Below are positions 1-45,401 of a DNA stretch of 45,401 nt, one piece after another; the stretch's first letter is position 1, and every line of letters begins with the position of its first letter. The stretch comes from Candidatus Omnitrophota bacterium. Its GTDB lineage: Bacteria > Omnitrophota > Gorgyraeia > Tantalellales > Tantalellaceae. The translations under genes were made by a program, and so were the position numbers. The notes beneath the pieces are model-generated. The model saw nothing but the letters and a program-made list of their open reading frames with translations, was not told the DNA's origin and did not search any database. The DNA is taken from positions 1 to 45,401 of the forward strand of contig JADGBR010000026.1 of NCBI GenBank assembly GCA_015231405.1, given 5' to 3'.

Positions 1-3000
1 GCGATAATGAAGTCCTGGCAGGCGGATGGCAGGTTCGATTTTGACCATAACGGCAAGATGTCAATGAACGAGGATATTAATCATAACGGGATCTTCGACC
101 AGGGCGAGGATATAGACAAGGACGGGATCTTTGACTGGCTTAACGAGAAGGCGCTCGCCCTAAAAGCCGGGAAAACATGGATCGCCTACGGCGAGTTCGA
201 TCTTAACGGCGATGGCCGCGTTACGGAATACGGCAATGAAGCCGACGCTGTGAGCTTGTGGCAGGCTAAAGGCGAGTATGACCTCGACAAGAGCTCGCTC
301 CAGGACATGAACGAGGACTTTGATGGAGACGGACATTTTGACGTAGGTGAAGACGTGAACTCGAACGGGATGCTCGCATTTAACGAGGATCTAGACGGCG
401 ACGGTAATTTCGACATTATCAACGAGCAGCAACTCGCGTTAACTGCCGGTTCTACTTGGACAGCTTACGGTGCATACGACATTGACGCAGACGGCGATCT
501 GGACCTGGGTCTTGAGGATCTGGACCACGACGGCAATTTTGACAATGTGTCGGAAGACCTTGACGGTGACGGCAGGTTCGATCTGGATGAGTCCGCTTTC
601 GCAACGAAATACCACGGTGTTTGGGAATCTTACGGTGAATTTGACCTCGATAAAGACGGCAATATGGATAACGACGAGGATCTGGACGCCGACGGATCGT
701 TTGACACCGGAGAGGACCTTGACCACGACCGCGTTCTTGATAAAACCGAGGACCTCGACGGGAACAAGGCTTTTGACCGCGGCGAAGAAAAGGACGGGAA
801 CGGGATATCTGCTCTTACGGAAGACCTTGACTCGGACGGCAACAGTGACTGGGGCGAGGATATCAATGGCGATCATGAACTTAACTTGACAGAAGACCTT
901 GACGGCGACGGTAATTTCGATGTCAACGAGGACGCGAACGGCAACGGTAGGCTCGACGAAGTCGAGGATGTGGACGGCGACGGCAGACTGGATCTGAATG
1001 AAGACATTGACGGCGACGGGAACTTCGATGCCGTTAGTGAACAGTCGCTGGCCCTGGCGGCCCACAGCACCTGGACTGCCCACGGAGTTTACGATATCGA
1101 TAATGACGGGAACCTTGACACAGGGGAGGACCTTAACCATGACTTTAAGCTCTCGATGACCGAGGACCTGGACATCGATGGGAATAACGATCGGGGTGAG
1201 GACGTTGACGCAGATAATGCTCTTGATGCCACAGAGGATCTTGACGGCGACGGGAACTTCGATGCCATCGACGAACAGGCGCTCGCTCGCGCGGCGCACA
1301 GCACATGGGCTGCCCACGGGGCTTACGATATCGATAATGACGGCAATAAGGACCTCGGCATAGAGGATCTTGACCACGACGGGGTTTTTGACAAAGTATC
1401 CGAGGATCTGGACAATGACCACCACTTTGACGACTTGAACGAACGAATACTTGCCGTAACCGCGGGGAGTACATGGGCCGCCTACGGCCTATTCGACCTT
1501 GATAAGGATGGAAATTTGGACCAGGGAGAGGATCTGGACGGCGATGGCAACCTCGATCCGGGCGAGGACTTTGACGGTGACGGCATGCTGGATCTGACAG
1601 AAGATATCGACGCTGATAAGGGATTTGATACAGGCGAAGACATTAACCATGACGGCGCGCTGGCTAAGACCGAGGATATAGACGGCGACGGTCACGCTGA
1701 CCGGGGCGAGCTTTATGATATTTCCGGGGACGGGAAAATAAGGGTCATCGATTCGAATCAAGACGGCGTTATCGACGAAAGGGACGATGTGGAATGGCGC
1801 GATCTTGACGGCGACGGAAAACTGGACCTTTCGGAGGACTTTGACGGCGACGGACGTTTTGACACCGGAGAAGACGCGAACTATAACGGTGTACTTGACT
1901 CAGGAGAAGATATTGACGGAGACGGGAATTTGGACAAGTCGGAAGATCTTGACGCCGACGGCCGTTTAGATACGGGCGAGGACGCTAACCACAACGGTCT
2001 AATGGATTATGGCGAGGATCTTAACGGGGACGCCATGCTCGCCAGGATCGAAGACCTTGATTCGGACGGCAATTTCGAGACGGGAGAGGACACTAACCAT
2101 AACGGCATACTTGACACCGGCGAGGACCTTGACGGCGACGGCAGCCTCGACAGGATCGAGGATCTCGACGGGGACGGCAATCTGGATATGGGTGAAATTG
2201 CTGATTTGAACCATAATGGGACAATCCTCGACGAATGGGCGGATTCGAACTCTAACGGTGTCATCGACTCGGCCGACTCTTTCATCGCCGGGGCCGGGAT
2301 GGATGCGGACGGGGATAGTGCCGTTGATCTTACCGAGGACCTTGACGGCGACGGCAATTACGATATCGGCGAGGACCTTGACGGCGACGGTCATTTTGAT
2401 AAAGTGTTCGAAGACCTTGACGGCGACCATAAAACGGACAGGGTTGATGAAGACCTCGATCTCGACAGGCATTTTGATAAGATCGATGAGGATATGGATA
2501 AAGACGGCAATTTCGACGATGTCAGCGAGGATGTCGACGGCGATTGGAATTTTGACGACACAGTCGAGGAATTTGACGGCGACTGGGATTTTGACGCCGT
2601 TAACGAGGACCTTGACAAGGACGGCAGGGCCGATCTCGTCAACGAAGATATAGACTCCGACGGCGCTTTTGATAAGTTCAACGAGGATGTTAACTATGAC
2701 GGTGTCTGGGACTATACCGACGAGGACATCGACGGCGACCGTCATTTTGACAGCGTGAGGGAGGATCTGGACCGGGATAGGAATTATGACAACGTCTACG
2801 AGGACCTTGACGGCGATCTTAGGCTCGACTCTTCTTCGGAGGACATAGACGGCGACCACCATTTCGACGTTGTCAACGAGGATGTCGATAAGGACGGTCG
2901 CTTCGATAGCGTTAAAGAGGATACCGACGCCGACGGCAATTTCGATAACCTGAGCGAACTCGCTCTCGCGACGAACGCGTTCAGCACTTGGACGCCTTAC

Positions 3001-9000: not shown

Positions 9001-12000
9001 GACCTTAACGAGGACCTTGACGCCGATGGCAACTTCGACGGCAAAGAGGATAAAGACGGCGACGGCAGGCTCGACGTGAAAGAGGATAAAGACGGCGATG
9101 GAAATCTTGACTCGGGCGAAGACAATAACCACAACGGCAAGCTTGACGCCGGCGAGGACAGGAATAACGACGGATATTTAAATCTCAGCGAAGACCTTGA
9201 CGGCGACGGTAATTTTGATAGGGCTGAGGACCTCGACGGAGACAATTATCTGGACACGGGCGAAGACAGAAATCACAACGGCGTTCTTGACGCTAATGAG
9301 GATATCGACCATGACGGTATCCTTGACGGGAGGGAAGACCTTGACCATGACGGAAATTTCGACGTAAATGAGGATGCGGACGGGGATGGCAACCTGGACA
9401 TTACCGAGGATACGGACGGGGATGGGAGACTCGACATTGCCGAGGACCTTGACAGCGACGGGAACTTCGATGTGGACGAGGCATCTCTCGCCAGTGCCGC
9501 GCATTCCACATGGACGGCAGGCGGCGTATTTGACGTGGACGGCGACGGCAATCTTGACCGTTTTAAGGAGGATGTCGACGGCGACGGTAATTTGGATCTT
9601 GGCGAAGACGGGGACGGCGACGGCAATCTCGATGTCAAAGAGGATGCAGATAACGACGGCAAACTTGATGTTTCGGAGGATATTGACGGCGACGGAAACT
9701 TCGATATTGTTAACGAGGATCAGGACGGCGACCGAAGGTTGGACAATGAAGAGGATATCGACGGCGACGGCAATTTTGACAATATCTGCGAGGATATTGA
9801 CTTTGACGGTAATCTGGATGAGAAAGAGGACGTCGATGGCGACAATAGGCTTGACGCGAGCGAGGACCTGGACGGCGACGGGAACTTCGATAAAGTTAAC
9901 GAGGATAAGGACGGCGACGGTAATCTTGACACGAAAGAGGATGCCGACGGCGATGGCCATCTTGATATCGGTGAAGACCTGAACTCGAACGATAAACTCG
10001 ACCCGGGCGAGGACATTGACGGCGACGGCGTGCTCGATAAAGGCGAAGATTTTGACGGTGACTCTTCGTTGGACACCGGCGAGGACGTCGACCATGACGG
10101 CCGACTTGACGTTGACGAAGCGGCCCTCGTCCTCGCGGCTATGAGCACTTTTGTCCCTTATGGCCTTTTTGATATCGACAAAGATGGTAATCAGGACACG
10201 GTTGACGAAGACCTTGACAAGGACGGCGTTCTCGACCGTACGGAAGACCTTGATAATGACGGGAGACTCGATAGGGGTATCGAGGATATTGACCATGACG
10301 GACATTTTGATAACGTAAATGAAGATATAGACAATGACGGCGACATTGATCCATACACGGAACTTGTCATAAAATACGGGCAGTCAGGAAGGGGCATATC
10401 GGAGGAGATCGATCAGATAATTAAAGCCGCCGACCAGGCCGAGTTCGCGCTCCAGAAAGCCCAGGCGCTTGCCCTTGCCAACCCGAACAACGCATATATG
10501 GACAAGTCCGTAAAGGAACTTGCGGCTAAAGTCGCGGACCTGAGGAACGTTGCCGACCTCATGAGAGAAGTGAGGACAGTGCGCGATAATACAGCGAGGG
10601 TCGTCGACGTGTCGGGATCGATCGATGTGTACGGCGATTTCATACACGCCATAATCACCCGAGCTGCCACCACTAATGACGCTAACACCAAAGGCGCGTA
10701 TCTTTCGGCCTATGAGATCGCCGATAAAGAGTTGGCTGATGCGCGGAACACCGTCATTTCTGCCGCTCAGACAGCGGACGAGGCCGCTAAGAAAGCGAAT
10801 GTCATAGCCATGTCCATGAACCAGTACATGGGTCTTACCGACACAATATTTAAGGAGGGTCAGCTGACATCGATCCTGAATTTCCTTAACCAGACCTCGG
10901 CTACCGCTCTTGATCAGGCGCAGGCGGCTTCAGGTAAACAATTTAGCTTTACACTGGACGCCGAAGCGGCTGAGCGTGAAGCCTCTACCGCTTGGGACGA
11001 AGCCCAGGGCAGGGAAGTTAATGTAAATAACGCCCAGATGAGGTATTTTGACGACATCAAGAGCCTATACTCTACGCGCGGCTGGTATTCCACCGCCGTT
11101 CTCATGTATGAACGCGCTTTCTATCAGATATACTCGCTCCAGAGAGGTAAAGCGGTCATCGAAGGCGATATTGACGTGTTCACCGGCAGGGCCGGCGAAC
11201 GTGTAAGCGTCACGCTAGATTATACGACTTACCAGAACATAGACCTCTCCGCCTGCAGGGATATTGACGACGTAGCGGAGGCAATTAACAGTGTTGTCGG
11301 TAGGACCGTCGCCGATACGAACGAGCTTGGCGGTCTCCGCATAACTTCAACGGCGATAGGCACGGGCGCGAATGTCATAATTACCGACGGCAGCCAGAAC
11401 GAAGTCGTGAAACGCCTTTTCACCGATCCCAGGAACCGGCAGGCGGTGGACGAATACCAGGATGCGCTTAACCAGATCGCTCCTCTTAAGTCGCGTGAAA
11501 AAGAGCTCGCGAAAGTCCTTAAGAACTGGGAGGTCCAGAAGGACGGGATGTACAGCGCCATGTCCAATTATTACAGCACCACGGTCCGTACGAAAATGAC
11601 CGAGACGGATGTCGCCCTGGAAAAAGCGTCTCAGGCGCGTTCAGAAGCCGTGAGGCTTAACGAGCAGGTCTCGGCAATGGATAGGGCGCTTTCCACGGTG
11701 AAGGCCAAAAAAGAAGCCTCGGATAAGAATCTGGCTGACCTCCAGGAAGCACTGAACAAGCTCGAGCTTCTCCGGGCTCAGACCAGTGATGCGTCCGATA
11801 CCGTTAAGAGGACAGCGCTCTTTGGCGCGTCGAAACAATACCAGTACGATTCCGGTATATCCGCGACAGGTTCGGTGACAGGCATAGCGTTCTGGAGCGG
11901 CATGATACAGGACCTGACGGAACTTCAGGTCCTGGAAGGCGAGAAACAATACGCGGCCAAGGCGACCGCTGTCGCCGGCGAGTTTGACGACATATCAGCC

Positions 12001-36000: not shown

Positions 36001-39000
36001 AGCGCAATTCTTTGCGGTTTGTCGTCATACGCCCTTTCTGGAACGCTCACTCAGATGAAAGATAACGCTGATCTGAGCGAAATGTTATCCTACGCCGTCG
36101 CCGGAGCCGGATCCAGGGAAGCTGTATTAAGCACTATATCACTGGCGTTGAGCTTTATGTCAGTTAACGACAGATCGACGCTCGTTAAAAATCTGGTAGA
36201 AAAGATCCCCGCATCATGGGTTGGCAGCCTCTTTGAGAAGATGGACGTCCGCATGGCAGCGGCGATCTTTAAGTCATTGGAAATTAGCGGTCGGCAATCC
36301 GTATTGTTCTTGATGAAAGACGCTTCTAAGTCTGTCGCCATGCTCCAGGAAGCGGGAGCCGACGTGGCGGCGGAATCGTTAAGCGCATCCGGCCTTTCCA
36401 GCGATAAATTCAGGGCTTTAACCTCCCAGATGTCAAATGTCTTCCTTGCGGCAGTGCTGGGCAGCGCTAAGATGAACAAGGAGCAGGCATTCACCGCCTT
36501 ACTTGCTACGGGCGCTAGAGCCGCCGATATAATTTCAAAAATGAACGTAACAGCTTTTGCCGAGGTCCTCAGGACCGCTTTAAGAGACCGCAATGCCTCC
36601 TCCATCCTTGAAACGCTTAAATCGATCGGCGATGTGCGGCTTGCGGCCGTAATATTCGCGCTAGGCTCTGACGCCGGTAAAATGACTGGCTTATTCGACG
36701 ACGCTACCCAGAGAAAGATCGTGGCGGCGCTCGCGAAATTTGATTCCTCCGAGAAGCTTGAAAAAGCCCTGGCTGATCTTTTAGTGACCACCCCGGCCGG
36801 CGCGGCCGCGGAAAAAATATCCGAAGTGAGGGAAATGCTCGCCGCCGGTAAGGGCGGGGATGCCGCTACTCTCGTAAAGGCCATGGATGAAGGGAACGCG
36901 AGAGCTCTTGTCACTAAACTCTCGACCCAGGAGAAAGTGACGCTTCTTCTCGCCCTTAAAGGCGACATGGACTCATTAGTAAAACTCCTGGGCAGCGTTA
37001 ACGCAGAAAGAATTTCCGCGATGCTGGACATGTCCGGTTCCAAAGGATTCCTCTCGAATCTCCTGGCCGACATGAAAACCGGTCTCGTGAACGACATGTT
37101 CAAAGACCAGGCCGGCCCCGACCTTAAACCGGCCGTTCGTGAGATGAATGTAACAGCCCTTACCGCGCATGCACAGGAGCTTATATCGGGCGGCAATTTC
37201 AAAGATGCCGTCAATCTTTTAAGCGTGAGGTCGGAAGCCGATATAGCGTCGATTTTGAGCTCATTGAGATTTAATATTGCCGGTAACGCGGTGTCTCTAG
37301 TTCAGGAGCTTCTCAGGCTTGACGGCACAGGCGCGAGGGCCGGAGCCATAGTCAGCCAGCTGGCTGCCGGGATCAAAAACGATCTAATATCGGCCCTTTT
37401 CAGCAAGAACACAACGGTTCTCAATAATGAGCTGTCGGATCTCTTAAGTAATATGGACGCGGCTGAAGTAAACGGTATGATATCAGCCGGAACTTTGGGG
37501 GATAATGCCGCTTTTGTTCTGGTGGCGCTAAGATCCGATGCCGCGGCTAATGTTCTATCGGCCATGGATGCCAATTCTGCGGGGAGTGTACTCAGCGGCA
37601 TGCTTCGAGACGGCGGCGCAAGAGAAAAAACAGGCGCTATTCTCTCGCAAATGAAGGATGCCGCGCTTTCCGGAATTATCCTTGGTATGGACAGCGCGTC
37701 AAGGGAACTGGTTTTCGCAAGACTTGACGAGGCTAAAACAAAACAGGTCGTGACTTATTTAGCCTCGAAACCGGAATCTTTTATGCCTGCTTTTAACGAC
37801 GCGATAAAAAAGGGCGACCTTAAGTTCGCCGCCCATCTGCTCTCGGGCGTTAACGCTGATTTCATCCTTAACCTATTCAGCCTCAATACTTCAACATTAG
37901 ATTTTAAAGTTGAAATAATGAAGAACCTCACATCGGAAAAAGCTCTTGAGGTCTTCACGCGGATGGCTAACGACGCTAAGACTGAGCTTGTATCACAGCT
38001 CCTTAAGAAAGATGAAGGGAAGAACGCTCTCGCGGGTATTATCGGCAAGATGTCTGAAGCCTCTGCCGTGGCATTCCTTGAGACGGTCGATATCGCTCTC
38101 GCCGTAGACCTGATCTACGCCATGGCGTCTTTGCGGGGTGGGGAAGGCGCCATGGACGCTGCCAGGATACTCGGAAGCATGGGCAGCGGGTTGAGAGATT
38201 CCATCATGAGTCAGCTTCTCGAAAAAGATAAGTTTAACGCGGCTATGTTCAGGCCGGACGCCGGCGATTTCAGGATAACAGCCATATTGAACAATATGGC
38301 AACAAAACTTGCCGTTAATTTTATTTTGAGCCTGAATCTCGGCGACCAGGCAACGCTTATTCCGGCGCTAAAGGATTCCCACGCCGTAGCCGTTATGGGA
38401 ACGATCGAAAATGGTTTTAATTTCGCGAATGTCGCGGCGAAAATGATTTCCATGGGCAATATGGACTCCGTAGCCAGGCTCGTCGGGTTGCTTACCCCGG
38501 ATAACGCCAGGGTTTTACTTGAAAGTCCGACCCTGTCCGGGTCGGTTCCCGGAATAATGGTCGCTATTGCCTCTAAAAGCGTCGAAAAAGCCAACCTTAT
38601 CTTTAATGCCATGGGCACCTCAGCCCAGGCCGATCTCTTTAACGCGATGGCCAAAAATAATGCCGCGGCCCTAGTGGGGATGATAAGCTACGCCAAAGTC
38701 GACATAGTCAGGCAGCTCCTTTTGAATACATCGATCAATACCGCAGAACTCGGCCAGTTCCTTGTAAATAGCGATGTAGCTAAAACAGTTACAGTGCCGA
38801 GGCTCGTGGGTATTATACAGGGAGTGAAGGATATCAAGAGGGACAGAGCCGAGGCTTTGGCCCAGTTCCTTGATGGAGAAGGCATTAAAGTTAACGCGGT
38901 GACGCCCATGGTGAGCCTGGTCGGTCCGGACGTATCAATTAACTTCCAGGTCGGAGCAAATGGCGCTCTTGGAGCTACTATTCAAGGCGGAACGCCTAAC

Positions 39001-42000
39001 ACTGGGCTGGAAGCGCAAATAAACGCCCTAAATATCACCTCACTTGATGCGAACAACTTTGCCCGAATAGTTGATGTCTTAAGGGAGAACGGAGTGACAT
39101 CGGTCAACCTTGTTTTCGCGGAATCCAACCTGAAGATCGTGGTCGATCTCACTGGCGCCAAAACAATATTGACCGAGATCACGAATACCAAAACAAATTC
39201 ATCCATTAAGGGCAGTATCGATATAACTGACGGTGTTTCCATATCTGAACAGAAACTTGGCATGGTCCAAACAGCCCTAGCCAGGAATATAACCGATATC
39301 AGAAGTTTTACGCAGGTAGCGATAGCCCTGGCTCTTGTCGGCGGTACAGACTCGCAGTTCGCGCTTACAGCCTCGTTCGATGTTATGGGTTCAGCCCGGA
39401 CGGAGATCGAAGCTGTCATAATGGGCGGGAAAATGGATGTAAGCATAGTTAGCCTGGGAGGGCAGCTCCTTACCGAGAAAATGGCCGTAGCGGCTAACCT
39501 GAATATAGTCGCCGCTCTCGCGAATGATCTGGCTATCATTATCGCCGAAGACCCGCTTATGTGCGCAGGGAACATTCTCGCCCTTGCCCCGACGGACATG
39601 GACTTCCTTGCTGACGGAGGGACAACGATGGTCACTAAAGTATCCGTCGCTGAAGGCGTCGTGGCGGCGATCAATAAGAGAGACACATCACAGCTCCGCG
39701 CCATTATATCCGACGGAAATATTTCGGCGACAATGCTGATAGCCGTGATAGGCAGCTTGGTCTCCGGAGCCGAAGGCCCGTTCTCTTTAGATTCCGTGGC
39801 GGGAACCATAGCTTCCGTAATGGACGCGATAGGGGGCGGGGTGCTGAATGATCTCGTAAGGTCCGTTGACTTTAAGACATTGAACGCCTTTGCGGGAGAG
39901 CTTCTGAAACAGTCGCCGACTGTGCTTGTGTCCGTCCTGGGGCGTCTTGCCTCAGATCTGGCATTTAAGGATGGCCTGAAAGCTATTTTGACGCCGATAG
40001 CGTCAGCCGCCCAATCAGGCAATATGAAGATCTTCATTATGAACCTTAGCGGGAACAAGGAAGCGACTGTTCAGCTTGCCGGCCTTATTAACACCAACGA
40101 TGAAATAAGAGACAAGATCTCTTTCGCTGTCAGAACTGAAGCCGCCGTCCTTTTCACCGCTTTGTCGAAAGTAGAAGGAGGCATAGCCGCTGCCGGCCTT
40201 GTAGCGTCCGGGATGCTCAATGATCCTTTTAGCGGCGTAACTAACGCGGCCGCCGCCCTGAACGCGGTAGACTCGAAAGCCGCCTCCGAGATCCTGGCCG
40301 CGGTTGCCGGGGGAACCCCCGTCTCCGCGTTAACTATCCTGACGGAGATGAAGAGCCAGATCAAAACCGGAGCAGGGACTTTGGCGTCGGCCGAAAAAAC
40401 CATACTCGAGAAATTCGCCGCCGCGGCAACTGCGGTCGAGTCGAAGCTGGCCGGACCGGATCAAGCGGCCGTATCAGCACTAATGACCGAAGTTAAACCG
40501 CTTCTTCCGGCAGCTCCAATGGCTTTCCAGGCCGATGTTAAAGATCAGGCTCACCAGAGGAAAGATGAACTCAATAACGCTGAAGTTACCGCTATGAGGG
40601 ATGACATAGTAAACGAGGGAATTAAGACTGAGGTCACAATCGGTAACAATAAATTTACCGTCGCAATAAAAGAGAAAGACATGCAGATGTTCACCGCCAT
40701 GGGTATCATTGGTCTTGACAATATTAAAGGGTTTATTGTTGAAGCGTTAACAATGAGGGCGAATCTCGCTGGAAAAGGCGGGGATATCGACGGTTTCTTT
40801 AAAGAGCTTAATGGTAAAACAATAGCTATTGGCAGTTTAGAAAAATCTAAGAGCCTGTTCGAGGACCATAAGGAAAGTGGTTACATAGGCTTTAATATGT
40901 CGATCATAGATAAGTTGAAATCTGCCACCCCTCAGGAGAAGGAGCAGTTGCGTAATTTGATAAAGATAGGTATTTCTCACGAGTTTATGCATGAGGCCGG
41001 TGTTGATGTTGATGACGAAAAATTGCTTTCCGCGGCCGATGCCCAATTAGCTAAATCACTCTGCGGCGATATGTCGAAAATAACGGCCTTTAAGGTTCTC
41101 ATCGGCGAACTTTCTACGGGCGGCGAATTCGTCACGCAGCTTGACGCTATTATAAAAACGATGGCTACTGAAACAAAAACTCAGCCCGATACATCCGGTA
41201 CTACTCCGGCCTTCGATGCCTCAACGCCTGAACCCGCGACCGTAATTTTACCCCAGGACATAGCGCCACCTGGGACATTGGAAGCCGCAGAAACATTGGT
41301 AGGTGCAGGTAAGGATGCCGGTACCAAGCCTAAGACCGTAGCTGAGGCCGAAGCTGGTAGTATGACGATCGATAGCTATATTGCCAGCATGGAAGGCATC
41401 GTTACGAAAGATGAGATCGTAAAACAACTGAATGACGCAAAAGTTACTTTAAACTTAGATGGAAAAGTATCAGATAATAAAACAGTCGCTGAAGATATAT
41501 ATCGTATCGCTGTTCAGAAAATATCCTCTAATAAGGATGAAAGAGTTAAGGCAGCGCAGGTGGAACTTGACAAGAAAATGGATGAATTCCTTAAAGGTAC
41601 GCCTGGGCAACCCCCGGCCACCGCTGAGGCTGTCATACAGAAGATGGAAGCTCTTCTGAACTATGTGCAAGATAATAAAGATAAGCCTGAGAATAAGGCA
41701 TTATTGGAAAAGATTGACGCTGCCCTTAAAACTTTGGCAAAACAGCTTGTGAAGTCCGGTGACCATGACAGGGTCATGAACGTTATGATGCCGATGATAG
41801 AAAGGCTGAGGGGAATAATGCCTAGCGATGATACCAATATGACAGAACCCGGTAAAATGCCTAAATTCAACAGATCAGAGCTTGTTGCGGCACAAATTAT
41901 GGGTCTTATGAGCGATGGAATAGCTGCATATCTGAAAGAAGAAGGGACGAAAGACGAAGGATCGCTAATTAAAGCGATGAATGTCGTTTTCAACTATGCA

Positions 42001-45000
42001 ACGCGAGCCGGCGAAGTATTGAGCAAAATGGATAATTCCAAGCACAACCTTAATAACCTTAGGTTGATGACGCTTTACGTATTCCTAGGCGATAAGGGCT
42101 GTGCTGACCAGATTATTGGCGGTGTCAGAGGTAAGATCGTAGAAATATTCCGTGAAATGCAGAAAACAGATGCGGCAAAGGCGGAAAAATTCGTTACCAA
42201 TGCGGCAAAATATTTTGAATTTACCGTGTATTCTGTCGTGAAACAACTGGGTGTTAAATTGCCCGCCAATGCGGGAATCGATGTAAACGCGAAACTCACT
42301 ACGCTTAAATCTGAAAACCAAGGGAATGATGAAATAACTGCCGCCTTCAACGCGATAAAGGAGACAGCGGGCTTTTTCAAGAAAGACGCCGCTGGAATGA
42401 CACCGGCAAGTAAAGAGAGGAACACCGAAGAGCCACGCGGTCCGCCACAGGCGACTACGGCGGCAAAAAATACCGTGGGAGAAACTATCGCGAAGGCAAA
42501 ACAGACCGCAAGCGCTACATCAAATAAAGCGGCGCAAAAAGAAAAACTAACAAATGCCATCAAGATATCAGCGCTTCAGCTTAACGAGATGGTTCAGAGA
42601 GGGATGATGACCCTTGGCGAGGCTCAGACTATTTTGAAGAAAGCGATTGATCAACTGACCCCGACCGAAAAAAGCGTTGTCCCTGAAATTGAATTCATGG
42701 AGGGAGGAATTACCATGACTGAACCGGGTTCAGCCCCGGTTGTAGTGACCCCCGAAAAAGTAACCGAAGCCGGTCAAAAGATCGGTTCGACTCTTGTCGA
42801 TATTGTAAACAATAACGAGATAGACAAGCCGAAAGCTGACGCACTGCTTCAGGCCGCCGGAGAACTGGGGCTAACGCCCATGGTCGAACAGTTCATGGCT
42901 GATTTTAATAACGCCAAAACTCCTGACGCTAAGCGGGCCGTTGTCGATAAATTTAACGCCGACCTTGGGGCCACTACAGGTCAAACTGTAAAATTCGACG
43001 GGACGAGAGCCAAAGAAGTTGCACCTGTTGCCGAACCGGTTCCGGGAACCGCACCAGTCGGTGCAGCGGCACCGGAAGCCACGGCGCCTGGAACCGCCGG
43101 AGCCGGTGCTGCCGCGACTGAAGTCGCGGCCCCTGAAGCCCCCGAAACCCCGGCACCGGAAGAAGCAGCTGTCCCGTGGGAAACGGCTATGACACCATCT
43201 GACGGAGGCGCCGCGCCGAGAGCCCAGGAGCCCGAGTACGTTCCTCCGATCTTCACTGACGCCCAGCTTAAAGGCGAGAAGGGCCAGCCGGCCACACGGA
43301 TAATGAGTTTCGGGAGAAAAGAGGATGCCGAAGCTTTCGCGAAAGCCTATGCCGAAAGGAACGGTATAGACATATCCGATGTGACCATCCTCGGCTTCGT
43401 GAGCAATGTCAACGCCGAATTCAGTTTTGATAAAGCCGGTAACCTTTCCGCGACCCTTAGTTCGGGTGCGGTCAATAGCGCCGCTGCTTTCGGAACGGTA
43501 GCAGCCGCGGCTGCCAAGTTGGGTATTAGCATAGCCAATGTGACATTTAAGGGTGATATAGGTGAAAGGGTCGGAACATTCAAATTTAACGCCGTAGGCC
43601 AGTTAACAAGTATGGGCTTCCAGGGCGAGTACAATTACGCTTCTGACGCTTCCCTGGCCGCCTTGGCCTTTGCCGGTGATCTTGGCGCTTCAGTTAAGTA
43701 CGTTTCGATATCCGGCAGGATAGGTTCTGTTCAGGGCACATTCAGCTTCAATTACAAAGGCCAGCTCTCGGGCGCTTCCGTTAAACGCGGGAACTTTGAT
43801 AATGACCTTCAGCTTAAGAGGGAATTCAACACTGTCGCGAGCGAACTCGGCCTAAAACCGTCGGAAGTGTCCATAGAAGGGACGCTTCTCGGCGAAAAAG
43901 GCACTTTCGGCATCAATAAAAAGAACGAGCTTTCCGGGAACATAACGAAAGGCGTCTTCGCCGATGAGGTCGAGCTAGCCAAAGAAGGCGCCAGGCTTTC
44001 AGGAAGGCTGGATATCAAGATCGAAAACCTTAATATAACCGCAAGGGTCGAATCCATTAAGAACCTTGAATTCTCCTTCGGGTTCCACGCCAACGGCACA
44101 CTTAACGTTGACCTTGGAGAGCTCAAGAAATATTCAATGCTGATGACCGAAGTTAAAGACGCCTCCGGCTCCTGCGCGATGGGGCTTGGACAGATGGTCA
44201 TGTTCATGGCGAAGAGCGGCGGTAAAGTTGTTCCGACTAAAGAGGCGATAAAAGCATTTACTGAGAGGGTCACGCAAGTTTTGAAGAACAACTTGTTAAC
44301 CGACCTTGATTCTAGGTCAAACATTAGCAGATCCCAGGTTTCAATGGGTATGGCTATGAATGAGGAGCTGGTTGGACTTTCAGGGAATATGAGCGCGATC
44401 AAAATGAATAACTATTTAGGGAGAGTCGATAGCGCGATTAATAACGCCGCCGTAGCCGACCTGCTCCTTACCTTAAATAAGGACCCGAACACGAAGTCCG
44501 ATATGGATATCACCGACCTCGCCATGCAGATAGCCGACAATAAGAGCCTCCAGCAGATAGGCGGCTCGCTTAAACTCGACCAGGCCTCTGTAATGACATG
44601 GGTGTTAAATGTCGGTAATTGCCTGAAAGTCGATACTGTAGGCAAGCTCGCCTCAAGGCACGATATGACGAAGTTCCAGGTAGTCCTGGCCCTTTATGAC
44701 AAGGGTTATCACGGGGCCGTCTGGGGTACGGCTTCACAATTCGATATGGCGAAATTCAAGTCCGCCGCCAAAGATATCGACAAAATGTTGACTGGCGGAA
44801 CTATGAACGACATAAAGACAGCCGCTACCGCCATGAACGCTACGAGTTTCCAGGTGGCTGTCATGGCTTATGACAAAGGTATAGCCCCCGGATTCCTTGG
44901 GACCAAAGAACCGTTCAACGAGGTGAAAGCGAAGGAATTCATCGCCGCCCTTAACGGCATGGCCGCCGATCCGGTGATGATGGCTAAACTCGAGACGGCA

Positions 45001-45401
45001 GCCGCCTTGACCGGGGCTGGTCTATTGCAGGTTTCCAGCGCGGCTTTCAATGCCGGCATACAGGGCGCTTTCGGGTTCAATACTTCTTACAGCGCCGCTT
45101 CCGCCGGACGGTACATCGACGGCATGAACTCAATGCTCGGCAATAGCGAGACATATCATAACCTCGCGAATGTGGTCGCGAATTTCTCGGCTGGCATGTT
45201 TCAGGTCGCCTCCGACGGTTACGCCAAAGGCACAGACGGCGTCCTGGGATTTAAATCTGAGGTAGATCTTACCCGCGTTGACAATTTCGCCCGGGGTATG
45301 GTCGCCATGACAACGGACGCGGGACTCGGCGCGTCCATGGAAAAAGCTTCCGTGAATTATAACGTCAGCATGTACCAGATAGCCTCAGCGGCCTATGGCG
45401 A
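1..45401 (+). CDS. Internal fragment of a giant multidomain, probably surface-exposed repeat protein (both ends outside window)
   Basis: Frame 1 is open from the first to the last base. I read every codon and found no stop in 15,133 codons, and repeat phase and domain sequence stay coherent throughout, so no frameshift is apparent. All other long frames, on both strands, are shadows. The order is: calcium-loop arrays (residues 1-2330 and 2615-3454), long helical regions with beta inserts, smaller calcium arrays, two CBM5/12-like modules, a degenerate YD-like stretch, a large alpha-solenoid (about 11,371-13,520), an HExxHxxG domain (about 13,521-13,713), alpha/beta repeats (14,432-14,703) and 58-residue repeats to the edge. 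There is no obvious transmembrane segment, Walker motif or SecA-like domain here. Cysteine is very rare (about 23). The likely role is an exported adhesion or fibre protein of a bacterium such as an Omnitrophota member. This is inference, because start, signal peptide and anchor lie outside. Chance or misassembly is unlikely given the unbroken frame. Confidence 0.95.
2371..2955 (+). repeat. Block of fifteen uninterrupted 13-residue (39-bp) calcium-loop units
   Basis: Fifteen consecutive units of exactly 13 residues start at each E-D-[LIV]-D and run without a single indel, ending where the Trp spacer begins (E-L-A-L-A). In these units the Glu falls at loop position 13 rather than 12. The otherwise conserved Gly at position 6 is replaced by His, Arg, Trp or Leu in eight of fifteen units (for example D-G-D-W-N-F-D and D-G-D-H-H-F-D). 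The 13-residue phase and the bulky residue set this block apart from the surrounding 12-residue units. Confidence 0.85.
6223..6690 (+). repeat. Block of twelve uninterrupted 13-residue (39-bp) calcium-loop units
   Basis: Twelve units of exactly 13 residues, again with no indel, again ending directly in a Trp spacer (E-Q-L-I-A...E-W). Gly-6 is replaced by Leu, Lys, Arg, Asn or Ala in five of twelve units. The layout matches the fifteen-unit block at 2371-2955, but the units are clearly diverged in sequence. Two separate homogeneous 13-residue blocks suggest a structural subclass rather than random length drift. Confidence 0.85.
6991..7842 (+). other. Helical, coiled-coil-like segment (residues 2331-2614)
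   Basis: About 284 residues with no calcium loops, rich in Ala, Glu, Lys, Ser and Met with heptad-like hydrophobic spacing (for example around M-Q-I-D-I-K-E-K-Q-A-A-I-D-N-N-L and M-A-D-L-K-E-K-K-L-K-Y-A). The first [YF]-S-T tripeptides appear here (L-Y-S-T-L-S-S). It separates calcium arrays 1 and 2 and probably forms a helical bundle or coiled coil between two rods. No named family was recognised. Confidence 0.7.
7843..10362 (+). repeat. Calcium-loop repeat array 2, residues 2615-3454
   Basis: Same EF-hand-loop type as array 1, about 60 copies by length, and mostly the strict 12-residue form E-D-x-D-G-D-G-N-L-D-x-x. This array is more uniform than array 1. G-N-L-D and G-N-F-D dominate, and V-K-E-D, L-T-E-D and T-G-E-D junctions recur. 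Three Trp-type spacers occur, with aromatic codons at 8284, 9511 and 10150. It ends at D-N-D-G-D-I-D-P-Y, where the sequence switches abruptly to helix. Confidence 0.92.
10363..11169 (+). other. Helical segment (residues 3455-3723)
   Basis: Ala/Glu/Lys/Gln-rich sequence with long predicted helices (for example A-D-Q-A-E-F-A-L-Q-K-A-Q-A-L-A-L-A and A-A-K-V-A-D-L-R-N-V-A-D-L-M-R). It ends with two [YF]-S-T motifs close together (L-Y-S-T-R-G-W-Y-S-T-A-V). It leads directly into the beta insert that follows. No family was recognised; the coiled-coil or bundle reading is inference from composition. Confidence 0.65.
11170..11436 (+). other. Flagellin-IN-like beta insert (residues 3724-3812)
   Basis: A compact beta-rich stretch within helical sequence. 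It reads F-T-G-R-A-G-E-R-V-S-V-T-L-D, then I-D-L-S-A-C-R-D-I-D-D-V-A-E-A-I-N-S, then L-G-G-L-R-I-T-S-T-A-I-G-T-G-A-N, then V-I-I-T-D-G-S. The order 'I-D-L-S, short helix ending in A-I-N-S, L-R-I-T-S-x-x-x-G' is the layout of the flagellin IN motif, also seen in FliD-like and phage tail proteins, where it forms a small exposed beta-alpha-beta unit. I infer a small projecting domain on the stalk. The similarity is by eye only. Confidence 0.5.
11437..13110 (+). other. Long coiled-coil region (residues 3813-4370)
   Basis: Nearly uninterrupted heptad-like sequence with many charged residues, for example L-K-S-R-E-K-E-L-A-K-V-L-K-N-W, K-N-L-A-D-L-Q-E-A-L-N-K-L-E-L-L and Q-T-R-L-E-R-Q-A-E-S-L-R-A-R-Y. 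Helices are broken by short Gly or Ser/Tyr turns near 11830-11900 and 12205-12300. This is typical of a stalk or antiparallel helical hairpins. The composition is Asp/Gly-poor compared with the arrays on either side. Confidence 0.7.
13111..16044 (+). other. Mixed helical region with short Gly/Ser/Tyr-rich loops (residues 4371-5348)
   Basis: Helical stretches (for example T-R-E-E-M-A-D-A-Y-Q-K-Y and near 15361-15560) alternate with loops rich in Gly, Ser, Thr, Tyr and Asn, such as T-P-G-A-G-N-Y-T-N-S and T-P-G-G-P-G-S-M-T-P-L-A-G. Several [YF]-S-T motifs occur (F-S-T-Q-G-W, N-Y-S-T-D, R-Y-S-T-G, A-Y-S-T-S-T-Y). A short beta-like piece sits at 15160-15300 (I-T-G-A-W-T-N-S-S-G-T-W-E-F). The end (S-A-T-G-V-Y-T) introduces the G-V-Y-T pattern seen repeatedly later. 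No named domain was recognised. Confidence 0.6.
16045..16881 (+). repeat. Calcium-loop repeat array 3, residues 5349-5627
   Basis: About 20 EF-hand-loop-type units of the same family as arrays 1 and 2. It begins D-E-D-K-N-R-N-G-V-L-D-G-K and ends D-K-N-D-N-G-R-L-D-V. One Trp spacer lies inside (Trp codon at 16381, in a W-L-P-M-G-I-Y-D context). After the Trp spacer block, the last third (from 16660) is degenerate, with longer gaps between loops. Confidence 0.9.
17074..17232 (+). other. CBM5/12-like carbohydrate-binding module, copy 1 (residues 5692-5744)
   Basis: The pattern Y-x-x-G-D-x-[IV]-T-Y-x-G-K-x-Y-Y-A, then Ser/Thr/Pro-rich sequence, then W-x-x-L-G-W matches the small chitin-binding ChiC/CBM5/12 fold, in which exposed aromatic residues bind polysaccharide. 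Key residues are Y-H-A-G-D-M-I-T-Y-G-G-K-V-Y-Y-A and P-W-T-V-L-G-W. The length (about 53 residues) suits this family. It follows calcium array 3 and is followed by another beta-rich stretch. I infer a sugar- or cell-wall-binding role. A second copy lies at 26935-27081. Confidence 0.6.
17233..17600 (+). other. Beta-rich stretch after the first CBM-like module (residues 5745-5867)
   Basis: Short hydrophobic and aromatic strands (V-Y-T-T-V-A-Y-W-V-S-I, R-V-W-L-G-G-P-T-W-E-S, W-L-H-V-V-D-Y-S-T-V-A-G) with several Trp and Gly residues. It could extend the carbohydrate-binding module or be a separate small beta domain. No family was recognised. Confidence 0.45.
17601..19200 (+). other. Helical, coiled-coil-like region (residues 5868-6400)
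   Basis: Charged amphipathic helices through most of the stretch, for example L-E-E-V-Q-K-Q-I-A-V-Y-I, A-R-A-Q-Y-E-D-L-K-H-A-Y-D-E-N-D and I-N-L-K-K-A-V-D-E-A-N-K-A-E-A. Tyr-Ser-Ser and Phe-Ser-Thr motifs are scattered among the helices (A-Y-S-T-G-L-S-N-S-F-S-T-G). It resembles the stalk at 11437-13110 and is probably another helical spacer. Confidence 0.6.
19201..19700 (+). other. Ser/Thr/Tyr-rich beta stretch (residues 6401-6567)
   Basis: Strikingly rich in Ser, Thr and Tyr, with S-S-S-Y-T-S-R-G, V-T-G-V-F-T-T-S-T-G, Y-S-T-R-T-M-P-G-V-Y-T-T, I-T-G-Y-Y-T-T-G and S-T-P-Y-S-T-V-I-S-E-S-Y-S-T-Y. Imperfect copies of [TP]-G-[VY]-[YF]-[ST]-T follow each other. Such composition is typical of extracellular beta-strand or O-glycosylated segments. 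Function is unknown. Confidence 0.55.
19701..20058 (+). other. Short helical connector (residues 6568-6686)
   Basis: Helical sequence (E-M-A-M-T-Q-L-K-E-V-Y-G-E-T-R-D-L-K) followed by a Tyr/Thr loop and another helix (F-I-M-Q-S-V-W-G-L-K-D-R-V). It joins the Ser/Thr/Tyr-rich stretch to calcium array 4. No domain was recognised. Confidence 0.5.
20059..20508 (+). repeat. Calcium-loop repeat array 4, degenerate (residues 6687-6836)
   Basis: About ten EF-hand-loop-type units, less regular than in arrays 1-3. It includes the incomplete units D-D-G-D-G-I-P-E-E-S-D and D-L-D-N-D-G-I-I-E-W. Two Trp spacers occur (Trp codons 20278 and 20443), one with the full N-E-Q-I-L-A...T-T-W-T-P-F-G-P-F-D pattern. 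Their presence shows that the spacer travels with the loop array. Confidence 0.85.
20509..21130 (+). other. Helical segment (residues 6837-7043)
   Basis: Starts with a hydrophobic loop (V-L-N-I-D-L-T-K-L-P-G-I), then Ala/Lys/Glu-rich helices (Q-Y-L-E-N-A-R-N-K-F-K-E-L-Q-D-L-A and Q-I-A-E-A-K-Y-R-A-V-A-A-Y-S-T-L). It separates calcium array 4 from the beta-rich YD-like stretch. No named family was recognised. Confidence 0.5.
21131..23100 (+). other. Beta-rich, degenerate YD/RHS-like stretch (residues 7044-7700)
   Basis: About 657 residues of alternating Tyr/Thr/Val/Arg strands with Gly-Asp or Asn-Gly turns. YD-like pieces include T-Y-E-Y-Q-G-E-P-G-H-E-R-I-T, R-E-V-D-D-R-G-V-V-H-Y-Y-R-Y, Y-D-T-H-N-N-I-V-T-Y-T-Y and T-G-D-V-L-T-D-Q-Y-G-N. 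RHS/YD repeats form beta shells or ribbons in large surface and toxin proteins. Here the motifs are degenerate, with no typical RHS core ending. It may instead be an unrelated beta-ribbon. It ends directly in calcium array 5. Confidence 0.4.
23101..23280 (+). repeat. Calcium-loop repeat array 5, short (residues 7701-7760)
   Basis: Three to four loops (F-D-K-D-G-D-G-R-A-D-F, D-I-D-K-D-G-N-M-D-V-D-E and D-T-N-G-D-N-V-V-N-S-S-D-Y-A) around one well-preserved Trp spacer (Trp codon 23179, A-S-A-A-G-S-T-W). The last loop is followed by S-S-D-Y-A, as in dockerin-type repeats. It is flanked by beta-rich sequence on both sides. Confidence 0.85.
23281..24765 (+). other. Mixed beta and helical region with a weak hydrophobic stretch (residues 7761-8255)
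   Basis: Beta-like strands (S-Y-V-V-H-V-Y-K-G-K-D-Y-G and F-G-V-Y-S-T-Y-T-G-L-D-Y-G) precede helices (D-V-Q-A-Q-F-M-A-M-Q-T-K-I-E-S-A). Near 24565-24620 lies G-V-L-L-D-L-G-L-G-M-L-I-G-G-A-V-A. This is the most hydrophobic short run of the first 30 kb, but it is broken by Asp and too short for a convincing transmembrane helix. Four [YF]-S-T motifs fall here. No domain was recognised. Confidence 0.5.
24766..24942 (+). repeat. Calcium-loop repeat array 6, short (residues 8256-8314)
   Basis: Four loops: D-Y-N-G-N-G-M-V-D-T-D-E, D-L-D-G-D-G-N-T-D-K-N-E, D-F-D-G-D-G-N-E-D and D-V-N-T-D-G-I-N-S. They lack a Trp spacer. This is the last true array of the protein; only one isolated loop follows, near 26839. 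Confidence 0.85.
24943..25490 (+). other. Helical segment (residues 8315-8497)
   Basis: Helical sequence including Y-Y-S-T-D-G-E-T-L-A-Q-L-K-G-F-Q and M-S-K-R-T-S-A-I-T-G-N-L-D-E-K-K. It connects array 6 to the Ig-like stretch. Nothing further was recognised. Confidence 0.45.
25491..25935 (+). other. Ig-like or beta-sandwich stretch (residues 8498-8645)
   Basis: Regular alternation of short strands: V-G-L-V-W-T-Q-N-G-A-I-V-E-V, Y-T-V-R-I-K-E-N, G-T-Y-S-V-I-V-T-S-G-G-E-Y, V-T-V-V-I-T-D-I-Y and G-T-V-T-L-T-N-G-V-V-T. The size (about 150 residues) and strand pattern fit one or two immunoglobulin-like sandwiches, common in bacterial adhesins. It contains P-G-V-Y-T, again in the recurrent G-V-Y-T context. 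The assignment is by pattern only. Confidence 0.45.
25936..26934 (+). other. Helical region with one isolated calcium loop (residues 8646-8978)
   Basis: Helices rich in Glu, Lys, Arg and Tyr (L-K-A-E-E-A-R-N-Y-T-L-G-I-I and F-A-E-N-R-D-E-L-A-K-E-V-R-Q-K-E). A lone loop, D-D-K-N-H-N-G-T-I-D-K-Y, sits near 26839-26880, just before the second CBM-like module. It may be a relic of a calcium array or a local calcium site. Confidence 0.5.
26935..27081 (+). other. CBM5/12-like carbohydrate-binding module, copy 2 (residues 8979-9027)
   Basis: Same pattern as copy 1: Y-F-P-G-D-V-V-T-Y-G-G-Q-A-Y-V-S, then a Pro/Ala loop, then L-N-W-V-V-D-N. G-D-x-[VI]-T-Y-G-G-[KQ] is shared exactly by both copies, while their loops differ. 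The two modules lie about 3,280 residues apart, each beside calcium-loop sequence. This would suit a multivalent polysaccharide binder. The family call is by eye. Confidence 0.6.
27082..29190 (+). other. Helical region, charge-rich (residues 9028-9730)
   Basis: Long amphipathic helices (K-L-R-G-E-L-A-K-E-E-I-S-E-K-K-E and V-A-V-Q-E-E-E-K-E-Y-R-K-Y) alternate with Tyr/Ser loops (S-S-A-S-Y-S-N-Y-Y-S-D and G-V-Y-S-T-T-A-V-S-A-F-S-T). Trp and Tyr occur regularly. It gives the impression of repeated helical hairpins, but I could not set a period. No family was recognised. Confidence 0.5.
29191..30840 (+). other. Mixed beta/helical transition region (residues 9731-10280)
   Basis: Contains the last [YF]-S-T motif (near 29527) and beta-like pieces (V-T-G-V-Y-T-F-R-G-N-L and I-T-G-D-G-V-Y-F-A-E-D), then helices and an Arg/Asp-rich stretch (30361-30660). 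Past this point, Tyr-Ser-Thr patterns and calcium loops disappear. It marks the boundary between the two compositional halves of the protein. Confidence 0.45.
30841..31860 (+). other. Helical segment at start of the Ala/Leu/Lys-rich half (residues 10281-10620)
   Basis: Helices such as F-L-S-R-L-G-Q-F-G-L-N-N-L-A-L-I and M-K-A-E-L-K-K-Y-L-E-E-A-L-A-L-D-K-L. Asp-Gly loops are absent and Met, Leu, Lys and Ala increase. No family was recognised. It leads into the charged linker. Confidence 0.5.
31861..32190 (+). other. Highly charged Glu/Lys/Arg linker (residues 10621-10730)
   Basis: About 110 residues, mostly Glu, Lys, Asp, Arg and Ala (E-K-E-E-R-M-A-A-A-K-E-R-Q-E-K-E-E and K-K-D-A-E-K-Y-E-S-K-D-K-R). 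Mixed i/i+4 opposite charges and few hydrophobics are typical of a single stable alpha-helix or an extended charged spacer. It divides the preceding helical domain from the next set of helices. Confidence 0.65.
32191..33540 (+). other. Helical bundle-like region (residues 10731-11180)
   Basis: Amphipathic helices about 20-30 residues long, rich in Lys, Leu, Gly, Met and Ser (I-K-A-R-L-K-D-L-K-E-C-G-E-L-L and M-L-S-S-L-K-N-A-G-T-L-M-S-K-L). Helices end in Gly-Asp or Gly-Ser turns. The repeating feel (K-x-L-x-x-L...) resembles the following solenoid, but I could not fix a unit. It ends in a Lys/Glu/Pro linker at 33520-33580. Confidence 0.5.
33541..34110 (+). other. Linker followed by alpha/beta units (residues 11181-11370)
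   Basis: A short E-P-E-K-Q-A-E-K-P-Q-P-A linker leads into strand-helix units: T-V-I-L-Q-L-T-G-G-T-V-T-I-I, then helix, then N-V-T-V-I-L-K-D-G-S-S-I-S-F, helix, and I-T-L-L-I-K-N-T-N-G-T-E-Y-S-L. The beta hairpin plus helix layout recalls the repeats at 43294-44110, though the spacing is less regular here. Confidence 0.45.
34111..38880 (+). repeat. Very long alpha-solenoid, MgtE-N/FliG-like helical repeats (residues 11371-12960)
   Basis: About 1,590 residues of short paired helices with recurring [ILV]-x-x-[ML]-[DKN]-x-x-x-A-[AG]-x-[VIL]-[LI]-x-x-M patterns. Clear examples are S-D-A-A-A-N-V-L-S-A-M-D-A-N-S-A-G-S-V-L, A-A-L-S-G-I-I-L-G-M-D-S-A-S-R-E-L-V and I-D-P-A-A-A-G-K-L-V-D-L-L-D. MgtE N-domains and FliG use the same 'M-D-P-x-x-A-A-x-[IV]-L' helical-repeat code to build a right-handed superhelix, but those have only a few repeats. 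A small Pro/Asp linker (around 35470-35520) interrupts it. There are no calcium loops and hardly any Trp or Tyr. I infer a protein-protein scaffold. HEAT/ARM-type repeats are the alternative. Confidence 0.5.
38881..39480 (+). other. Alpha/beta insert within the solenoid (residues 12961-13160)
   Basis: Strand-helix units: V-S-I-N-F-Q-V-G-A-N-G-A-L-G-A-T-I, then helix, V-T-S-V-N-L-V-F-A-E-S-N-L-K-I-V-V-D-L, helix, and F-A-L-T-A-S-F-D-V-M-G. Beta hairpins recur about 64 and 76 residues apart. The layout (hairpin with G-x-L, helix, G-[VI]-x-x-[VI]) matches the 53-55-residue repeats at 43294-44110, which suggests a shared module. Confidence 0.5.
39481..40560 (+). repeat. Alpha-solenoid continued (residues 13161-13520)
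   Basis: After the alpha/beta insert, helical repeats of the earlier type resume (N-I-V-A-A-L-A-N-D-L-A-I-I-I-A-E-D and S-K-A-A-S-E-I-L-A-A-V-A-G-G-T-P). Ala and Gly increase and units become less regular toward the end. It leads into the HExxH domain. Confidence 0.45.
40561..41140 (+). other. Domain with HExxHxxG metalloprotease-type motif (residues 13521-13713)
   Basis: Contains I-S-H-E-F-M-H-E-A-G, with the His-Glu-x-x-His at residues 13,660-13,664 (codons from 40978). It is preceded by a helix (L-R-N-L-I-K-I-G), as usual for zinc metallopeptidase active-site helices. A beta piece (T-E-V-T-I-G-N-N-K-F-T-V-A-I) and a Y-I-G-F-N strand precede it. The metzincin third ligand (His or Asp, three residues after the Gly) is Val here, with Asp at the neighbouring positions, so activity is uncertain. 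No other HExxH was seen in the window. It could be a zinc peptidase, an inactive relative, or a chance motif. Confidence 0.45.
41141..41360 (+). other. Thr/Pro/Ala-rich linker (residues 13714-13787)
   Basis: Low-complexity linker with T-K-T-Q-P-D-T-S-G-T-T-P, S-T-P-E-P-A-T-V-I-L-P and I-A-P-P-G-T-L-E-A-A-E-T. Pro and Thr spacing suggests a flexible, possibly glycosylated interdomain segment on the C-terminal side of the HExxH domain. Confidence 0.6.
41361..42702 (+). other. Helical region between linkers (residues 13788-14234)
   Basis: Amphipathic helices rich in Lys, Ala, Asp, Met and Asn (V-E-L-D-K-K-M-D-E-F-L-K, K-I-D-A-A-L-K-T-L-A-K-Q-L and G-K-I-V-E-I-F-R-E-M-Q). It includes a G-M-T-P-A-S-K...P-R-G-P-P-Q linker near 42391-42460. 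The sequence M-T-E-P-G occurs at 41839 and again at 42715. Domains are unrecognised. Confidence 0.45.
42703..42717 (+). promoter_or_regulatory. Possible internal ribosome-binding site with in-frame ATG
   Basis: GGAGG at 42703-42707 is followed after 7 bases by ATG at 42715-42717, in the reading frame of the giant gene. Spacing and match to the Shine-Dalgarno consensus are ideal. It falls inside continuous coding sequence (E-G-G-I-T-M-T-E-P-G), so it may be chance arising from Glu-Gly-Gly codons. If used, it would yield a separate C-terminal product. Confidence 0.2.
42718..42990 (+). other. Helical segment before the Ala/Pro linker (residues 14240-14330)
   Basis: Helices V-T-P-E-K-V-T-E-A-G-Q-K-I-G-S-T-L-V and K-A-D-A-L-L-Q-A-A-G-E-L-G-L-T. 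It is short, with no recognised domain. It links the possible internal start to the Ala/Pro linker. Confidence 0.4.
42991..43290 (+). other. Ala/Pro/Glu-rich linker (residues 14331-14430)
   Basis: Low-complexity sequence with repeated P-x-A and A-P-E motifs (P-V-P-G-T-A-P-V-G-A-A-A-P-E-A and E-A-P-E-T-P-A-P-E-E-A). Probably a flexible hinge between the helical half and the alpha/beta repeats that follow. Codon use is more GC-rich than the surroundings, as expected for Ala, Gly and Pro codons. Confidence 0.65.
43294..44110 (+). repeat. Tandem 53-55-residue alpha/beta repeats (residues 14,432-14,703)
   Basis: Copies begin with [TE]-F-[SKG]-[FI]-[ND]-x-x-[GN]-x-L, then strands, a helix and a second strand such as V-x-[IF]-x-G-x-[IL]-G-x-x-x-G. 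Starts are at 43417, 43576, 43738, 43903 and 44068, a spacing of 53, 54, 55 and 55 residues, with a shorter first unit from 43294. Sequence identity between copies is limited, but the hairpin, helix, strand order is clear. A related layout occurs at 33541-34110 and 38881-39480. I do not recognise the family. It resembles a small beta-alpha-beta unit stacked in series. Confidence 0.7.
44111..44673 (+). other. Helical connector (residues 14,704-14,891)
   Basis: Helices and turns between two repeat arrays, for example M-L-M-T-E-V-K-D-A-S-G, V-L-K-N-N-L-L-T-D-L-D and D-L-A-M-Q-I-A-D-N-K-S-L-Q. It may hold a diverged first copy of the 58-residue repeat, but I could not align one with confidence. 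Confidence 0.45.
44674..45401 (+). repeat. Tandem 58-59-residue helical repeats running off the window end (from residue 14,892)
   Basis: Anchors of the form [FYL]-Q-[VI]-[AVS]-x-x-[AG]-[YF]-x-x-G occur at 44674, 44848, 45025, 45199 and 45373, separated by 58, 59, 58 and 58 residues. Between anchors lie a G-x-x-G-F-type loop and helices with F-x-x-A-L-N-G-M or N-F-A-R-G-M. The fifth copy is cut by the window edge. The very regular period suggests a single structural unit. No family was recognised. Confidence 0.75.

What the first reader, a model, noticed from the sequence alone, without database searches (positions are those of the whole stretch)
1..45401. A single open reading frame spans the entire 45.4 kb window
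I read all 15,133 codons in frame 1 without meeting a stop, and repeat phase stays intact throughout. The window is only part of a gene, so the full protein must exceed 15,000 residues, longer than almost all bacterial proteins. Giant proteins of this kind are known from Omnitrophota and a few other phyla but are poorly described.
Basis: partly seen in the sequence, partly recalled or inferred. Interest (0 to 1): 0.9.

Follow-up and report, generated by a model that had tools for sequence, protein, structure and literature searches.

The report
Giant Omnitrophota protein gene fragment
The whole 45 kb window is the downstream third of one enormous bacterial gene, probably more than 45,000 codons long, whose order of parts is shared by distant relatives in the phylum Omnitrophota; such giant proteins are thought to grip and attack other cells, but what this one does is not shown.

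Summary
Frame +1 has no stop in all 15,133 codons, has genome-typical codon usage, and the longest exact repeat is 29 bp, so a repeat-driven misassembly is unlikely. The window is bases 1-45401 of a 48,086-bp contig; it ends at a 34-N gap, after which the frame resumes and is still open at the contig end.

Two more contigs of the same genome (C6, 69.9 kb; C41, 18.0 kb) are also giant open frames. In the order C6 > C41 > window they are colinear with one uninterrupted 45,037-codon frame in another genome bin (40 of 49 masked tile hits in order; permutation maximum 19). So the window is most likely the downstream third of one gene of about 45,300 codons, both ends unseen. A core (aa 7052-10167) recurs across the phylum, its clear matches always inside giant or whole-contig frames (one of 39,033 codons with a real stop).

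Anatomy: about 219 Ca-type DxDxDG loops, helical stretches, YD-like beta repeats, a predicted zinc-peptidase domain, about 17 tandem 60-aa repeats; upstream dockerin, laminin-G and discoidin domains. Most likely a secreted Ca-stiffened adhesin-effector. Giant Omnitrophota proteins are known; the phylum-wide conserved order is the new part.

The parts
1..45399 (+). Open reading frame of 15,133 codons, open at both window ends; part of a gene that continues upstream (contig end) and downstream (C18:45440-48085 after a 34-N gap)
   Evidence: 0 stops in frame +1; codon usage r=0.95 with genome; continuation
1..10335 (+). Calcium-type DxDxDG repeat region, aa 1-3445, about 14 loops per 250 aa, usual spacing 12/24 residues; one helical insert at aa 2336-2665 (7006-7995)
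   Evidence: 219 DxDxDG-type loops in the whole window against 6.7 in shuffles; TRF 36-bp units; no Pfam model reaches E 0.01 for aa 1-3000
10348..15900 (+). Alanine/lysine-rich, probably helical or coiled-coil stretch, aa 3450-5300; weak colinear similarity to relative G003
   Evidence: composition; G003C113 matches at aa 3464-3658 and 4823-5289
16078..16800 (+). Second calcium-type repeat block, aa 5360-5600
   Evidence: loop count; TRF 16414-16586
21154..24390 (+). Conserved core part 1, aa 7052-8130: YD/RHS-like beta repeats ('YxGxxGxExV...') followed by helices; found in relatives across the phylum, the clear matches always inside giant or whole-contig frames
   Evidence: G003 34-40% identity over 1079 aa; G170, G035, G397, G422, G437
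27724..30501 (+). Conserved core part 2, aa 9242-10167
   Evidence: G003C202 30-36% identity; colinear in G035, G397, G422
34348..38910 (+). Leucine/alanine-rich helical repeat region, aa about 11450-12970, resembling MgtE_N/FliG-type superhelix
   Evidence: Pfam MgtE_N whole-protein E 7.3e-19, best stretch aa 12634-12700; boundaries by eye
40546..41160 (+). Predicted zinc-peptidase domain, aa 13516-13720, HEFMH at 40978-40992; shared with large Omnitrophota proteins
   Evidence: 12 of 99 related genomes have it; HExxHE kept in 12 of 13 aligned domains; model pLDDT 84.9; Foldseek best matches M1 gluzincins, E 0.019
43318..44250 (+). Repeated alpha/beta modules, aa about 14440-14750
   Evidence: seen by eye in the translation
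44773..45401 (+). Start of the tandem array of about 17 repeats of 57-65 aa ('YGVSAFQVAVAAYGEGTKGAFGF'), running on to the end of contig C18
   Evidence: repeat register listed; no other contig of the genome holds it; the part beyond the window gives a Pfam Jag_N match, E 4.5e-8

Best explanation
The window is the downstream third of one giant gene of an Omnitrophota bacterium. In gene order the known pieces are contig C6 (reverse), contig C41 (reverse) and contig C18 (window), together about 45,300 codons, with start and stop not yet seen. The upstream two thirds are mainly sugar- and protein-binding modules (dockerin type I, laminin-G, discoidin, pentaxin and similar); the window brings a long calcium-type repeat section, a conserved core with YD/RHS-like beta repeats, helical repeat arms and a predicted zinc peptidase. 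The most likely working is: secretion; calcium ions stiffen the DxDxDG repeats outside the cell into a long stalk; the lectin-like domains hold another cell or a polymer; the core and tail modules (here a peptidase, in a relative also a SecA-like ATPase and an acetyltransferase) act on the target. Shown: open frame, colinearity, domain content, absence of obvious membrane helices. Inferred: one polypeptide, secretion, calcium binding, adhesion and attack.
For: Open frame and continuation. C6 and C41 are giant or whole-contig frames of the same genome with the same codon usage and GC. Colinearity with the 45,037-codon G035:C9 frame after masking calcium loops: 49 tile hits, 40 in increasing order, permutation mean 11.1, maximum 19 of 10,000, 0 decoy hits. 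In G003 the orthologue is colinear over C113 and C202 and those contigs share a 19-bp end in frame; G003C96 matches C41 at 35-41%. Single contigs of G437, G422 and G397 carry the C41-like to core order too. Adhesion-type Pfam domains upstream; subtilase in the G003 orthologue at E 5.6e-30; SecA-like at E 1.6e-23 and GNAT at 2.4e-14 in the G397 tail. 0 TM-like segments and 0.15% Cys fit an extracellular protein; a 2,973-aa protein of the same genome (C33) with the same repeats begins with a signal-peptide-like N-terminus.
Against: No start codon, signal peptide or secretion signal of the giant gene itself was seen. C6, C41 and C18 share no ends, and C6 has three N runs and one frame change at a GGGGG run. 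No binding domain is matched in the window itself: Pfam finds only MgtE_N above cut-off there. The SecA-like and GNAT domains are in a relative; no SecA-like part is detectable in the window, and such ATP- or CoA-using domains are odd for a purely extracellular protein. The core structure model failed (pLDDT 33.7).
Confidence: 0.55

Rival explanations
1. The gene is real and giant, but its product is a passive coat or matrix of the cell (as proposed for the 'coated' Velamenicoccus), a structural layer rather than a weapon.
For: Repetitive, acidic, low-cysteine sequence with lectin-like modules would suit a coat; a coat was proposed for the 39,678-aa LiM protein (PMC10066038).
Against: Predicted peptidases (window HExxH, G003 subtilase, three HExxH in G397) and SecA-like/GNAT domains in relatives are not expected of a passive coat. 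LiM is reported to have 42 TM helices, here none is seen.
Confidence: 0.25
2. The contigs C6, C41 and C18 belong to two or three separate giant genes rather than one.
For: No shared ends between the contigs; C6 has a frame change between its first two frames.
Against: Their order equals that of one uninterrupted frame in G035:C9 and, for C41 to core, of single frames in G437, G397 and G422; all six contig ends lie inside open frames.
Confidence: 0.15
3. Assembly artefact: the open frame is a chimera or a collapsed repeat in a short-read bin.
For: The genome is a bin of 93 contigs with N gaps; contig ends fall in or near repeats.
Against: Longest exact repeat 29 bp; even codon usage along the window; colinear orthologues from other genomes; the G035 frame is found again at 99.999% identity over 78,088 bp in a second bin.
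Confidence: 0.03
4. The giant frame is a pseudogene-like or selfish accumulation of repeats without function.
For: Most relatives lack the core (374 of 384 sampled genomes without a match).
Against: No stop in 15,133 codons although 3,884 codons are one substitution from a stop; third codon positions diverge more; a 45,037- and a 39,033-codon homologue are equally open.
Confidence: 0.02

Closest known systems
Giant ORFs of Omnitrophota (Seymour et al. 2023, PMC10066038), including the 39,678-aa protein of Ca. Velamenicoccus archaeovorus LiM
   Same: Same phylum, single frame over 20 kb, dockerin, laminin_G_3 and discoidin modules, proposed adhesion or predation
   Different: LiM is reported with 42 TM helices, here 0 TM-like segments. 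That paper calls giant ORFs of its Velamenicoccia class poorly conserved; this one keeps its order across several families. Length about 45,300 codons if the three contigs are one gene. Direct homology to LiM was not tested.
Giant genes of predatory bacteria (West-Roberts et al. preprint, cited in PMC12057145, proteins up to 85,800 aa)
   Same: Same size class and phylum, proposed cell-wall attack
   Different: The preprint is not held here, so whether this gene is among those listed could not be checked
About 6,000-aa extracellular protein of Ca. Menyafoubacter (PMC12057145)
   Same: RHS-like, TSP3-like and adhesin-like parts in one large protein without TM helices
   Different: More than seven times shorter, with a signal peptide and a polysaccharide lyase domain
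Gluzincin zinc peptidases (M1 aminopeptidases, minigluzincins)
   Same: HExxH helix and outline of the modelled domain
   Different: E only 0.019 and TM-score 0.45; the likely third ligand is an Asp 16 residues after the second His, not the usual Glu

Membership tests
Giant ORFs of Omnitrophota | Omnitrophota genome | tested here: met
   Same-family relative is DAOVKF01, titled Candidatus Omnitrophota bacterium CSMAG_1412
Giant ORFs of Omnitrophota | Single open frame longer than 20 kb | tested here: met
   45.4 kb in the window
Giant ORFs of Omnitrophota | Adhesion-type domains (dockerin, laminin_G_3, discoidin) | tested here: met
   On C6 and C41, the upstream parts; not in the window itself
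Giant ORFs of Omnitrophota | Multiple transmembrane helices, reported for LiM and for most Omnitrophia giant ORFs (common, not required) | tested here: not met
   0 TM-like segments in window, C6, C41 by a simple, strict hydropathy rule
RHS/YD-repeat proteins | Match to the family's sequence models | tested here: not met
   No RHS model at E 0.01 in Pfam or NCBIfam for the window
RHS/YD-repeat proteins | Beta-cage fold | tested here: inconclusive
   Model of aa 7052-8130 failed, pLDDT 33.7
Gluzincin-type zinc peptidases | HExxH motif | tested here: met
   HEFMH at 40978-40992, kept in 12 of 13 aligned domains
Gluzincin-type zinc peptidases | Fold and third zinc ligand | tested here: inconclusive
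   Foldseek E 0.019, prob 1.00, TM 0.45; conserved Asp in place of Glu
MSCRAMM adhesins (ClfA/SdrD) | NCBIfam score above cut-off | tested here: not met
   65.5 bits against a cut-off of 1150; match to Asp-rich composition only
Thrombospondin type 3 / dockerin calcium repeats | Pfam match within the window | tested here: not met
   0 families for aa 1-3000; TSP3_bac and Dockerin_1 match on C6 and C41 instead
Thrombospondin type 3 / dockerin calcium repeats | Calcium binding | not testable with these tools
   Needs a binding assay

The most novel reading that the evidence does not exclude
A phylum-wide orthologous family of single proteins of 39,000 to over 45,000 residues with a fixed order of parts: glycan-binding fibre, conserved YD-like core, and a variable tail of enzymes (zinc and serine peptidases, SecA-like ATPase, acetyltransferase) that are delivered to a target cell. 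That would be among the longest colinear orthologous proteins known and a single-molecule attachment-and-delivery device.
Probability: 0.25. Interest if true: 0.9.

Novelty: new member of a known kind. Interest (0 to 1): 0.6.

Why it matters
Giant Omnitrophota proteins have been called poorly conserved and hard to interpret. A frame whose order holds over about 45,000 residues across families gives landmarks (core, peptidase, repeats) for comparing them, and makes the questions 'is it one polypeptide' and 'does it touch prey' testable by metaproteomics with peptides from known positions.

Tried and rejected
Rfam scan: nothing. PDB sequence searches with the core parts and with the calcium and helical regions: no credible match. 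AlphaFold of core part 1 failed with 3 sequences, so no fold search was made from it. CBM_5_12 and Orbi_VP5 matches in the window are below cut-off and dismissed. MSCRAMM hits dismissed as composition. Search for the N-terminus with G035 aa 1-1984 in the own genome: none. A3 matches in G239 and G084 are weak (1e-4) and were not used. The Kizina 2022 paper and the West-Roberts preprint are not held. Exact contig-end overlaps between C6, C41 and C18 were looked for and not found. The [YF][ST][ST] motif was tested as a DNA-level insertion element and rejected: its codons vary and it is not confined to inserts against G003.

Full report
Observation. Translating the window in frame +1 gives 15,133 codons with no stop; the five other frames hold 303 to 1274 stops each. 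Under the window's base composition this has a chance of about 10^-326. Codon usage agrees with ordinary genes of the genome (r = 0.95) and third codon positions diverge most against a relative. The longest exact direct repeat is 29 bp. I therefore take the frame as real; reads were not available.

Where it lies. The window is C18:1-45401 in a 3.66-Mb bin of 93 contigs. C18 is 48,086 bp. Directly after the window stands a run of 34 N, then an open frame of 882 codons to the contig end. The tandem 60-aa repeat continues across the gap, and its register suggests that the gap size is an estimate and the frame is not truly shifted (inference). The contig's first base is already inside the frame. 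The nearest orthologue, G003, is named Candidatus Omnitrophota.

The rest of the gene. Contig C6 of the same genome (69,855 bp) is made of frames of 3030, 4951, 1144 and 14,308 codons on one strand, broken near N runs and at one frame change by a run of five G. Contig C41 (18,005 bp) is one frame of 6001 codons open at both ends. In another bin, G035, contig C9 (135,114 bp, no N) is one frame of 45,037 codons. With calcium loops masked, tiles taken along C6, C41 and the window hit G035:C9 in the same order: 40 of 49 in one increasing series, against a maximum of 19 in 10,000 permutations, and no hit to the reversed sequence. The core of the window itself matches G035:C9 at aa 38,064-40,687. 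G003 shows the same order over three contigs. I conclude that C6, C41 and C18 are most likely one gene, about 45,300 codons so far, with both ends unseen (inference from colinearity; the contig ends do not overlap).

Distribution. A profile of the core found 10 of 384 genomes across the phylum; apart from the window genome, the clear matches lie in frames of 45,037, 39,033, 26,028, 17,962, 14,636, 4579 and 1801 codons, the last two being whole contigs. The G397 frame (39,033 codons, no N) has a TAA stop and is followed by ordinary convergent genes; its start is beyond the contig end. The 26,028-codon frame in G404 is 99.999% identical to G035:C9 over 78,088 bp, so one of these two bins holds a misplaced contig; codon usage favours G035 slightly (0.95 against 0.92) and GC fits neither well. 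The frame itself is thereby seen in two bins, though perhaps from the same sample.

Anatomy and working. The window begins with about 3,445 residues rich in DxDxDG loops, has helical stretches, a core with YD/RHS-like beta repeats (by eye; no model match), helical repeats with an MgtE_N match, an HExxH domain kept across Omnitrophota with a confident model that resembles gluzincins only weakly, and about 17 repeats of about 60 aa. The upstream contigs hold many dockerin type I, several laminin-G, discoidin, pentaxin, ILEI and 3-keto-disaccharide-hydrolase-type matches. The G003 orthologue has a subtilase before the core; the G397 tail has a SecA-like ATPase, a GNAT domain and three HExxH motifs. 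There are no TM-like segments and few cysteines. The best reading is a secreted calcium-stiffened adhesin with enzymatic parts, used against or on another cell. Only the sequence facts are shown; secretion, calcium binding and target are inferred.

Known or new. Giant Omnitrophota ORFs are published: over 20 kb in many genomes, 39,678 aa in LiM with peptides raised in attached cells (PMC10066038), and up to 85,800 aa in a preprint cited by PMC12057145. This gene is a new member of that kind. The added point is a conserved core and a fixed order over a giant length across families, whereas published giant ORFs of the Velamenicoccia class were described as poorly conserved.

Noticed in passing
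window aa 2342-9843 (7024-29529): The motif [YF][ST][ST] occurs 69 times in the window against 15.5 in shuffles (maximum 31), nearly all in this stretch, with varied codons; also enriched in the G003 orthologue and C6, not in 131 ordinary genes of the genome nor in G035. Unexplained; perhaps a modification or processing site.
   Followed up: partly
L062-L068 (G035:C9) and L172-L175 (G404:C32): The same contig, 99.999% identical over 78,088 bp, sits in two species bins of different families: one bin is contaminated.
   Followed up: partly
L168-L169 (G397:C47, about aa 33,900-34,500 of 39,033): SecA-like ATPase domain (Pfam E 1.6e-23, motif TGEGKT) and, nearer the end, a GNAT domain inside a giant frame; a weak DEAD-type match in G422 lies at the corresponding place.
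   Followed up: partly
L010:7562-16483 (C33:82561-91482): A complete 2,973-aa protein with a signal-peptide-like start and the same DxDxDG repeats as the window.
   Followed up: no
own genome, contigs C2, C13, C16, C29, C31 and others: Many further frames of 2,000-6,800 codons; the genome (3.66 Mb) is about twice the size of most relatives.
   Followed up: no
L203, L215 (G410:C4 and C26): Frames of 23,704 and 21,284 codons with distant matches to the upstream part; could hold a start codon but could not be fetched.
   Followed up: no
L130 (C10:14-589): A subtilase fragment at a contig start, 52% identical to the subtilase of the G003 orthologue.
   Followed up: no
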